Source: Meghimatium bilineatum (lineage: Eukaryota > Mollusca > Gastropoda > Stylommatophora > Philomycidae). Taken from it: 64,000 nucleotides of DNA. The position numbers were made by a program, and so were the translations under genes. Below, piece by piece: positions 32,401 through 35,400 of this stretch. The DNA lies in NCBI GenBank assembly GCA_034231615.1, contig CM067309.1, forward strand, positions 30,335,860-30,399,859. Direction: 5' to 3'. The notes under the pieces are model-generated. The model was not told the DNA's origin. It searched no databases and saw only the letters and a program-made list of their open reading frames with translations. The first letter of the stretch is position 1. Every line of letters starts with the position of its first letter.

Positions 32401-35400
32401 GATAGGCAAAGGCTGTACTCATAATAATGACATATATACTGTGTCCCTGTCAAGATGCACTTCTATAGAAGAACACTGAGAGTTTCATGGACAGCCAGAT
32501 ACACCAACAAAGAGGCGCCGAAGGAGTCCAAATACGAGATAGGGAATACTTAATAATATCGGACACACAATATTTGTAACGGGGAGGTTTGGAGAAGATA
32601 GTTACAACAGGCAAGATAAAGACATCAGGGATGACAATGCGAGAAAGAAAATCAATAGTCTGACATCATGACATGGCAAAGAGTCAAAATCAAAGGTCCT
32701 GATAAAAGATAATGAAAATTGTGGAGAGTCGTGATCACCTATGCCAGTCAGCACTGCACCTGATGATAGGGGATGAAATAATCAGTTGATTCAGCAGGCT
32801 GAGCAAGATAACACCAGTTGTCGTCACTACTTTCAAATCTGTAGATCTGTGATCTCACTTGTATTAATTATTAACAGAGTGCAGTTCCAGTGCAGAGTTT
32901 TATTGTCAAGAACTCTACCTTTTGTATAAACTTGTATTATCTCACTCTAATAATGTTTCTGTTGTTACAACCAGGTTTATATCAAGTGTGTTTCTTTTAT
33001 AACTAGTATCTAGTATATTGTATGTTTCTGTTGTTACAACCAAGGTTTATATCAAGTGTGTTTCTTTTATAACTAGTATCTAGTATATTGTATGTTTCTG
33101 TTGTTACAACCAAGGTTTATATCAAGTGTGTTTCTTTTATAACTAGTATCTAGTATATTGTATGTTTCTGTTGTTACAACCAGGTTTATATCAAGTTATG
33201 TTTTTAGTTTTAACCAGTATCTTGTATAGTGTATGTTTCTGTTGTTACAACCAAGGTTTATATCAAGTGTGTTTCTTTTATAACTAGTATCTAGTATATT
33301 GTATGTTTCTGTTGTTACAACCAAGGTTTATATCAAGTGTGTTTCTTTTATAACTAGTATCTAGTATATTGTATGTTTCTGTTGTTACAACCAAGGTTTA
33401 TATCAAGTGTGTTTCTTTTATTACTAGTATCTAGTATATTGTATGTTTCTGTTGTTACAACCAAGGTTTATATCAAGTGTGTTTCTTTTATAACTAGTAT
33501 CTAGTATAGTGTATGTTTCTGTTGTTACAACCAGGTTTATATTAAGTTATGTTTTTAGTTTGTTTGTTTTGCGTTCGCTCCATTGTAACCATCACGGGTG
33601 TCCGTGCGATTTTTCGCCGGGAGCGTGATTACGTTGTGCCACCGTTATGCGCCTTGTAGGCCTAGCACATCCGATTTCGGCATGCCTTGACAATTCGGGT
33701 GGGCTACCCTTAACCTGTGACAGCCTCTATATCTGTCTCCAGGCACGCGTAGTGGCGACTCTTCGCCCAGACGATTTTTGCTCTCGTCTGAATCGTACGA
33801 GGTGTTCCACTGTCTATAAACTTGCCTCGTGTAATTGGACGTGCTGTGCCTGTGCCCATTGGGTACTGAACCGTTTCTCATCCGTGAGCCTGGTTCCTTA
33901 AGGGGAAGAACTCAACAGAGGAGTTGGGCCCTGGCTCTTTCGCCCTCTTAGCCGAGGTGTCATTCACCGACATCGTGTACCCCTTGTCCAAGTTCTAGTC
34001 TCACACCACGCGTTTGAGAGCAAGGCGTTCTCGAGCTGATCGTCCTTGTCCCAATAGCGCCTGAGCCCATCAGGTACTGAACCCTTTCTCTCTTCAAGTG
34101 TATTTCCGGTGTAGGAAAACCTGACAGTAGAGTTGGGCCAGGGCTAAATCGTTGTCCCTTTTGTGCCTGAGCCCATTGGGTACGGAACCCTTTCTCTCTG
34201 CAAGTGTACTTCCGGTATAGGAAACCTTGACAGTAGAGTTGGACCAGAACTACCATCTATGTCCCTTTCTTGCCTAAGCCCATCGGGTACAGAACCCTTT
34301 CTCTTCGCGAGCATATTTCCGGTTTAGGAAGGCTCGACATTAGAGTTGGATTAGGTCTTCTTGCTTTACCAAACACAAATGAATGGGTCTGTGTCTCTGC
34401 CTGTAAGGAACTCAGGTAACTAGATGCTCGTCTCGAGCTGACGGAGCTTGTAGTTCCAATTCCCTAGAGACTTTTCACTTTCTATTTGTAGTTCGCGCTG
34501 CCCTCTAGCGCTGTTCTGCCCTTTCATTGTACTCGGTATGAAATCTATTTGTCTCTCGCCGTGCATCTACCTTTACGTGCATTTTACATTGGCCGCCCCT
34601 CCAATGTTCAGACTGGACTGACTAGCTTCACTGTATGTCGACAGTGTCGCTATATGTGGTGATGCTGGTAGTGTCGGAGATATTGTCTGTTCTTGTGCAG
34701 TCAAATCTCTTTCCATCTGCTACCTCCACATTCTCGGACACGATCCCCAAATGATTTCGCCAGAATCAGCTCGAGCTGCTGTATTTCTGTTTCCAGGGTG
34801 CACCGCGTGGAGGTACATTTGGGATCTTGGTTATCTGCTAACCCTGGGTCCGCCTAGAGCAATGCGTTCCCTTTGCACCCCATGTTGTTAGTTTTAACCA
34901 GTATCTAGTATAGTGTATGTTTCTGTTGTTACAACCAGGTTTATATCAAGTGTATGTTTTTGTTGTTACAACCAGGTTTATATCAAGTGTATGTTTGTGT
35001 TGTTACAACCAGGTTTATATCAAGTATGTTTTTGTTACAACCAGGTTTATATCAAGTGTATGTTTCTGTTGTTACAACCAGGTTTATATCAAGTGTATGT
35101 TTCTGTTGTTACAACCAGGTTTATATCAAGTGTATGTTTCTGTTGTTACAACCAGGTTTATATCAAGTGTATGTTTCTGTTGTTACAACCAGGTTTATAT
35201 CAAGTGTATGTTTCTGTTGTTACAACTAGGTTTATATCAAGTGTATGTTTCTGTTGTTACAACCAGGTTTATATCAAGTGTATGTTTCTGTTGTTACAAC
35301 CAGGTTTATATCAAGTGTATGTTTCTGTTGTTACAACCAGGTTTATATCAAGTGTATGTTTTTGTTGTTACAACCAGGTTTATATCAAGTGTATGTTTTT

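What the first reader, a model, noticed from the sequence alone, without database searches (positions are those of the whole stretch)
33562..34887. Apparently undescribed long non-coding retroposon (R1)
Four copies (23262-23393, 33562-34887, 44340-46355, 58182-59249). Three have direct repeats at both ends, of different sequence and length (9, 7 and 12 bp). One is 5'-truncated to its last 130 bp. All three complete 3' ends share GGTTACAATGGAGCGA followed by an A-rich tail. The full copies are 1.07 and 1.33 kb, GC-richer than the surroundings, lack an open frame and have internal repeats that differ in number between copies. This is target-primed retroposition (established mechanism) by an element too long for a standard SINE and without coding capacity. 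I do not recognise it from any family I know (inference).
Basis: partly seen in the sequence, partly recalled or inferred. Interest (0 to 1): 0.75.

Follow-up and report, generated by a model that had tools for sequence, protein, structure and literature searches.

The report
Ribozyme-capped non-coding jumping element
This is a high-copy non-coding 'jumping' RNA element of an animal-like genome whose first letters appear to form a self-cutting RNA that trims it out of longer transcripts before another element's enzyme copies it back into DNA.

Summary
In detail: four related copies, three with target-site duplications (TSDs), no coding capacity. The host genome (1.61 Gb) holds two discrete subfamilies, R1a (1.32 kb) and R1b (1.07 kb). 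The two window copies keep all 32 pairs, with two compensatory changes. My descriptor, written after folding one copy, finds only R1 5' ends in the window and fetched loci, none in 40 shuffled windows. TSDs of 11-16 bp end immediately before base 1 in 16 of 20 R1a and 8 of 8 R1b copies. R1 thus looks like a non-autonomous retroposon freed from co-transcripts by its ribozyme: SIDE-like in working, unusually long and abundant. Its 3' domain recurs in two short families whose ends resemble an RNase-H LINE with long open frames, whose own 5' end also folds HDV-like: the best partner candidate, unproven. Cleavage is predicted, not shown.

The parts
58182..59250 (+). Copy c4, R1b type, full length, about 1.07 kb
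58182..58321 (+). HDV-like ribozyme of c4: P1 58182-58188 with 58262-58268; 48-nt J1/2 58189-58236; P2 58237-58247 with 58310-58321; P3 58249-58251 with 58259-58261; L3 58252-58258; P1.1 58253-58254 with 58269-58270; P4 58274-58302; catalytic C 58304
   Evidence: cleavage not shown
58170..58181 (+). 5' TSD of c4 (AACAAACAGAAT), ends immediately before base 1
59250..59261 (+). 3' TSD of c4 (AACAGACAGAAT)
59131..59250 (+). Conserved 3' domain and A-rich tail of c4
39589..39735 (+). Uninterrupted relative of the site into which c4 inserted (LINE remnant)
33562..34881 (-). Copy c2, R1a type, full length, about 1.32 kb
34742..34881 (-). HDV-like ribozyme of c2; base 1 at 34881, catalytic C at 34759; two compensatory pair changes against c4
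34882..34894 (-). 5' TSD of c2 (AAACTAACAACAT read on the minus strand)
33549..33561 (-). 3' TSD of c2 (AAACTAAAAACAT read on the minus strand)
34059..34350 (-). 107-bp internal repeats of c2 (a further unit at 33837-33932)
23262..23390 (+). Copy c1: only the 3' domain and tail; TSDs at 23252-23261 and 23393-23402
44340..46360 (+). Copy c3: decayed; P1 has two mismatches, P4 filled by a satellite, an inserted element, no R1 3' end found
   Evidence: P1 mismatches by eye
19187..20465 (+). Fragment of the RNase-H LINE family with GTGAACGAAA(GAA)n end; candidate partner

Best explanation
R1 is a non-autonomous non-LTR retroposon for which I found no promoter. A copy is transcribed as part of a longer RNA. 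The HDV-like ribozyme at its 5' end cuts immediately before base 1 and so gives an RNA with a uniform 5' end. The conserved 3' domain and A-rich tail are taken up by the endonuclease and reverse transcriptase of a LINE, which nicks DNA, primes on the tail and copies up to base 1, or less far in truncated copies, leaving TSDs of 10-16 bp. Shown from sequence: uniform 5' ends, TSDs, the fold with compensatory changes, conservation of both ends, many copies. Inferred: self-cleavage, co-transcription, enzyme supplied in trans. Least certain: that the enzyme comes from the RNase-H LINE family (about 0.5).
For: Fold found at the first base of both full window copies and nowhere else in the window, 0 hits in 40 shuffled windows, one strand each. 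Rfam permissive search places drz-agam-1 at the same spot in c4 (16.3 bits), c2 (19.6) and L006 (24.2, E 0.034). All 32 pairs kept in c2 and c4 despite 14 differences, two of them two-sided pair changes; random placement keeps all pairs in 323 of 200,000 trials, with two or more compensations in 9. Both ends conserved, middle not. TSD ends immediately before base 1 in 16 of 20 R1a and 8 of 8 R1b copies; 380 mismatched flank pairs gave 0 in 327 and a maximum score of 8. Empty site seen for c4.
Against: No biochemical evidence. All Rfam scores are below the gathering score of 37; in c4 an unrelated family (HOTAIRM1_3, other strand) had a better E-value than drz-agam-1; R1b copy L064 gave no match at E<=5. 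The descriptor and the structure were drawn after looking at c4, and c2 soon after, so the statistics are not blind. The descriptor passes 13 of 20 R1a and 6 of 8 R1b copies, and also misses L024 and L043, which align to the R1 5' end. The copies examined were the best-scoring ones and thus mostly full length by selection. Folding z-scores are ordinary. R1a/R1b tails are (AAAC)n while the candidate LINE has (GAA)n, and R1a does not align directly to the LINE 5' UTR better than shuffles (217 of 300 do as well).
Confidence: 0.8

Rival explanations
1. R1 is the shortened (internally deleted) form, or the untranslated ends, of one coding LINE that has the same ribozyme and the same 3' end: a true SIDE.
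For: 5' and 3' ends are the conserved parts, as in R2 SIDEs (PMC3414825, discussion read).
Against: In about 350 kb of window and fetched loci neither R1 end was seen attached to a coding element. That sample is small and was chosen by RTE, RNase-H LINE and R1 queries. The genome pattern search for this did not complete.
Confidence: 0.25
2. R1 is a long SINE with an internal Pol III promoter; the HDV-like fold is coincidental or a relic.
For: B-box-like words (one mismatch to RGTTCRANNCC) recur in the internal repeats; it shares a 3' domain with short SINE-like families S and T.
Against: The box-like words lie 500 nt or more from the 5' end; no tRNA gene found in the window; no tRNA or 5S match among permissive Rfam hits of c2, c4. 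The box scan had no shuffled control. The fold sits exactly at base 1.
Confidence: 0.08
3. R1 is an LTR-retrotransposon derivative (LARD/TRIM) or a retrozyme (hammerhead, circular RNA).
For: Non-coding, about 1 kb, ribozyme-like motif, many copies.
Against: Self-comparison of c2 shows internal repeats but no terminal direct repeats; TSDs of 10-16 bp and A-rich tail; copies examined are single, not dimers; no hammerhead match at E<=10 in c4 or c2.
Confidence: 0.02

Closest known systems
R2 SIDEs and R2/R1 hybrid SIDEs of Drosophila (PMC3414825; abstract and discussion read)
   Same: 5' HDV-like ribozyme, 3' sequence for LINE uptake, no coding capacity, co-transcription model, TPRT with TSDs
   Different: SIDEs sit at fixed sites in rRNA genes, are rare and derive from R2/R1; R1 here is dispersed, abundant, 1.07-1.32 kb with internal repeats, and its descent from a LINE is not shown
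NARTc / RIME / SIDER of trypanosomatids (PMC4035085; passages read)
   Same: Short non-autonomous retroposons with a 5' HDV-like ribozyme (Pr77), some shown to cleave
   Different: Ends shared with L1Tc/ingi; Pr77 is 77 nt; protist hosts; R1's ribozyme has a 48-nt J1/2 and no Pr77 similarity was tested
drz-agam-1 (Rfam RF01787)
   Same: Best-aligned Rfam HDV-like family: P2, P3 with L3, P4 align
   Different: Sub-threshold (16-24 bits against 37); R1 has a long J1/2, so P1 does not align
R2 ribozymes (PMC3774820; abstract and sections 3, 12, 16, 19 read)
   Same: P1 of 6-7 bp, P2 of at least 5 bp, variable P4, catalytic C, conserved U and G in L3; J1/2 is called highly variable in PMC3414825
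   Different: Belong to a coding, site-specific element
Animal non-LTR retrozymes (PMC7229834; passages read)
   Same: Non-autonomous, ribozyme-bearing, many copies
   Different: Hammerhead ribozymes in short tandem repeats that give circular RNA

Membership tests
HDV-like ribozyme | Nested double pseudoknot P1, P2, P3, P1.1, P4 | tested here: met
   c2 and c4 form all 32 pairs; descriptor
HDV-like ribozyme | Active-site bases: catalytic C in J4/2, L3 U and G, P1.1 G-C | tested here: met
   Present in c2 and c4; in 23 aligned copies P1.1 pair 73-88 is C-G in 23 and 72-89 in 22
HDV-like ribozyme | Match to a curated family above its cut-off | tested here: not met
   0 matches at gathering score; 16.3-24.2 bits against 37; none at E<=5 for L064
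HDV-like ribozyme | Self-cleavage | not testable with these tools
   needs in vitro transcription
SIDE (internally deleted non-LTR element) | 5' ribozyme at the element's first base | tested here: met
   (prediction from fold and TSD boundary)
SIDE (internally deleted non-LTR element) | Both ends shared with one autonomous LINE | tested here: inconclusive
   Not seen in fetched loci; pattern search unanswered
SINE | Internal Pol III promoter / small-RNA-derived head | tested here: inconclusive
   No tRNA gene, no small-RNA head in Rfam searches; weak box-like words without control
Non-LTR retroposon | TSDs of variable sequence, A-rich 3' tail, 5' truncation | tested here: met
   truncation seen in c1
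LARD/TRIM | Long terminal repeats | tested here: not met
   no terminal direct repeat in c2 or c4
Retrozyme | Hammerhead ribozymes in tandem copies | tested here: not met
   no hammerhead match at E<=10 in c4 and c2; the 28 copies with flanks are single
NARTc/SIDER | Pr77 sequence at the 5' end | not tested
   Pr77 letters were not at hand

The most novel reading that the evidence does not exclude
R1 stands for a retroposon economy in which HDV-like self-cleavage takes the place of a promoter: an abundant RNase-H LINE with its own 5' HDV-like ribozyme, and long non-coding parasites (R1a, R1b, the L043 type) that carry a different HDV-like ribozyme of their own, are dispersed in high numbers, and share with the LINE's short parasites only a 3' recognition domain.
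Probability: 0.4. Interest if true: 0.75.

Novelty: new variant of a known kind. Interest (0 to 1): 0.62.

Why it matters
As I recall it (no call), HDV-like ribozymes of animals were assigned mainly to coding LINEs and hammerheads to short elements; PMC3414825 calls SIDEs rare. An abundant, dispersed, long non-coding element with an HDV-like ribozyme at its first base would show that a self-cleaving 5' end can sustain a large family with neither promoter nor protein. Two subfamilies whose ribozymes differ by compensatory changes, and young copies (mean 2.0% and 2.7% from the majority sequence among the 20 R1a and 8 R1b best-scoring copies fetched), make it a ready system to test what cleavage contributes to retroposition and what a LINE enzyme reads at the 3' end.

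Tried and rejected
RTE-type family as partner (clade named from memory): 3.4 kb, 1026-aa frames, (GAT)n tail; no R1 similarity attributable to the LINE itself and no HDV-like hit (5'-anchored test 0 hits). Rfam matches judged chance: HOTAIRM1_3 in c4, a Giardia snoRNA in family S (E 0.088), Rubella_3 (E 0.00057, below its cut-off) and microRNAs over a hairpin in the LINE 5' UTR. Function of the 107-bp internal repeats: RNAalifold gives 21 pairs, 2 with two-sided changes, covariation term -0.12, z-scores ordinary; no claim. 3' domain: stable predicted fold, 0 of 33 pairs with two-sided change among three copies. Viral-contig scan for a 20-mer of the 3' domain: 0. Pfam on ten frames: RNase H in two (one below its cut-off), three weak matches below cut-off, five with none. 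Paper searches for HDV-like ribozymes in non-autonomous or molluscan elements; SINE domains of molluscs; I recognised no listed title as describing this element, and the library holds open-licence papers only. Not done: Dfam/Repbase, an unbiased copy count, and the genome pattern search.

Full report
What was checked. BLAST within the window confirms one repeat family: c1 23262-23390(+), c2 33555-34881(-), c3 44340-46360(+), c4 58182-59250(+). c2 and c4 are 75.8% identical over 1,072 aligned bases, unevenly: 87-95% in nt 1-180 of c4, 53-78% in nt 181-900, 87-97% in nt 901-1020, 79% in the last 60, which hold the tail. GC is 0.50 against 0.38 in the window; the longest stop-to-stop frames are 98 and 114 codons. 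c3 is a ruin with a satellite and an inserted element.

Retroposition. c4 interrupts a LINE remnant that exists uninterrupted at 39589-39735; c2 interrupts a satellite array. TSDs are 10, 13 and 12 bp; random 5' flanks do as well in 16, 0 and 5 of 5000 trials. The window's genome (1,612,235,226 bases, 32 contigs, unnamed) gave 40 scored R1a matches, the other 39 at 95-97% identity, and 40 scored R1b matches, the other 39 at 90-95%; the first looks had 6,584 and 11,686 candidates, which are not confirmed copies and whose two lists may overlap. Strong R1 matches also occur in 3 of 38 loci fetched for a reverse-transcriptase family (about 176 kb; a weaker one in L030); by inference, some tens of thousands of copies or fragments. 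In 20 R1a copies (L001-L008, L047-L058; L001 is c2 itself) a TSD of 11-16 bp ends immediately before base 1 in 16; L047 has a weak one offset by a base; L050, L055 and L057 have none that I trust. Of 380 mismatched flank pairs 327 scored 0, and one reached 8, the lowest score among the 16. All 8 R1b copies (L059 is c4 itself) have TSDs of 11-12 bp abutting base 1. Tails are A-rich, mostly of AAAC units.

The 5' end. A permissive Rfam search gave drz-agam-1, an HDV-like ribozyme, at the same place in c4 (16.3 bits, E 3.1; a chance family scored E 2.1 there) and c2 (19.6 bits, E 0.53); nothing in the window reached a gathering score. Folding by hand showed why the score is low: P1's 5' strand lies 48 nt upstream of P2, at the very first base. 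The structure is P1 GGGGUGC/GCACCCU with the G1.U wobble; P2 GAUCCCAAAAG/CUUUUGGGGAUC with one bulged G; P3 GCC/GGC around L3 UCCUCGU; P1.1 CC/GG; P4; J4/2 with the catalytic C. In c2, P2 reads AAAUG/CAUUU and P3 ACC/GGU: two compensatory changes, no pair lost among 32, 14 differences in 142 nt. Random placement of 14 changes keeps all pairs in 323 of 200,000 trials. Energy folding, which cannot form pseudoknots, finds P1 with P3 in c4 and P2 with P4 in c2. A descriptor written after folding c4 finds only the starts of c4 and c2 in both strands of the window, and nothing in 40 shuffled windows, one strand each. A looser form finds only R1 5' ends among L001-L074: 13 of the 20 R1a and 6 of the 8 R1b copies. 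The missed R1a copies carry changes in P1, P3 or J4/2, the missed R1b copies in P1, one also in P2 and P3. L024 and L043, further R1 relatives, are missed as well. R1a copy L006 reaches 24.2 bits, E 0.034, in Rfam, while R1b copy L064 gives no match at E<=5. PMC3774820 (abstract, sections 3, 12, 16, 19 read) describes for R2 the P1, P2 and L3 features used here; PMC3414825 (abstract, discussion read) calls J1/2 highly variable.

The 3' end and a candidate partner. R1's last ~130 nt share a block (GCCGAAATCGGATGTG..GGCC..GGCGCA..CACAACG) and the terminal GAACGCA with two short families of the window: S (about 267 bp; tails at 35989-, 28080-, 25722-, 1792-) and T (about 150 bp; 30290+, 51069+, 56904-, 52212-, 47780-), which end in GAACG followed by GAA repeats, one S copy and some T copies with a changed base. 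TSDs that fit were found for 2 of 4 S and 4 of 5 T copies. Scores: S against R1a 45 (best of 300 shuffles 29), T against R1a 31 (27), S against T 52 (28). An 81% relative of R1 (L043) has a (GAA)n tail. An RNase-H LINE family (110 matches scored of 79,478 candidates; frames open over up to 1,317 codons) ends GTGAACGAAA(GAA)n in L068-L070. Its 5' UTR resembles S (34; best of 300 shuffles 27), T less clearly (24; 4 of 300 reach it), and R1a not at all directly (217 of 300 reach it). The LINE's first base opens a fold of HDV topology (P1 CCCCAUC/GAUGGGG, P2 GACCAG/CUGGUC, P3 ACC/GGU, J4/2 CUAAGA) that 1 of 5000 shuffles can form; the RTE family's 5' end cannot. That test leaves L3 and P1.1 free; they do not fit the consensus well, the stricter descriptor rejects this end and Rfam shows no HDV match. 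It is a lead only. The scan meant to find an element sharing R1's own 3' end did not complete.

Mechanism. Co-transcription, release at base 1 by the ribozyme, TPRT by a LINE enzyme in trans. Shown: 5' ends, TSDs, fold, compensations, conserved ends. Inferred: cleavage, source of the enzyme, what is read at the 3' end. The coincidence of the predicted cleavage site with the TSD boundary in 24 of 28 copies (c2 and c4 among them) is the strongest single argument; the 28 were the best-scoring copies and so mostly full length by selection.

Comparison. It works like a SIDE or NARTc. It is not filed as a SIDE, because common descent with one LINE is not shown; not as a Pol III SINE, LARD or retrozyme. 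The name R1 belongs to a known rDNA retrotransposon (named in PMC3414825) and should be changed.

Noticed in passing
35989-36257 (-), 28080 (-), 25722 (-), 1792 (-): Short family S, about 267 bp, starting CGTGTGTTGCC and ending GAACGCA(GAA)n, with a 3' block shared with R1 and with the RNase-H LINE 5' UTR.
   Followed up: partly
30290 (+), 51069 (+), 56904 (-), 52212 (-), 47780 (-): Short family T, about 150 bp, starting CCCGCCGAAGACGGATGTG at a TSD boundary in 4 of 5 copies; what makes its sharp 5' end is unknown.
   Followed up: partly
L071 from 1021, L072 from 1027, L073 from 1149, L074 from 1152: 5' end of the RNase-H LINE can fold in HDV topology from its first base (1 of 5000 shuffles), though strict descriptor and Rfam do not see it.
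   Followed up: partly
L039-L046: Young RTE-type LINE family (clade from memory), 3.4 kb, copies about 99% alike, 1026-aa frames, (GAT)n tail.
   Followed up: partly
G000:C11:18677473-18707729: Five R1a copies on one strand, most spaced about 3.6 kb apart, which suggests a tandemly repeated unit that contains R1.
   Followed up: no
44463-45515: A 16-bp satellite (about 67 copies) has grown inside the P4 region of the decayed copy c3.
   Followed up: no
45889-46061: CAGTGGCGTAGC...GCTACGCCACTG element with terminal inverted repeats inserted in c3 (by eye).
   Followed up: no
window-wide, e.g. 5210-6189, 10612-11778, 17217-18286, 40161-41493, 61569-62814: The window is unusually rich in long minisatellite arrays: 62 rows in Tandem Repeats Finder, overlapping rows included.
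   Followed up: no
L043:624-1736 (-): A third R1 type, about 81% like R1a, with a (GAA)n tail instead of (AAAC)n.
   Followed up: partly
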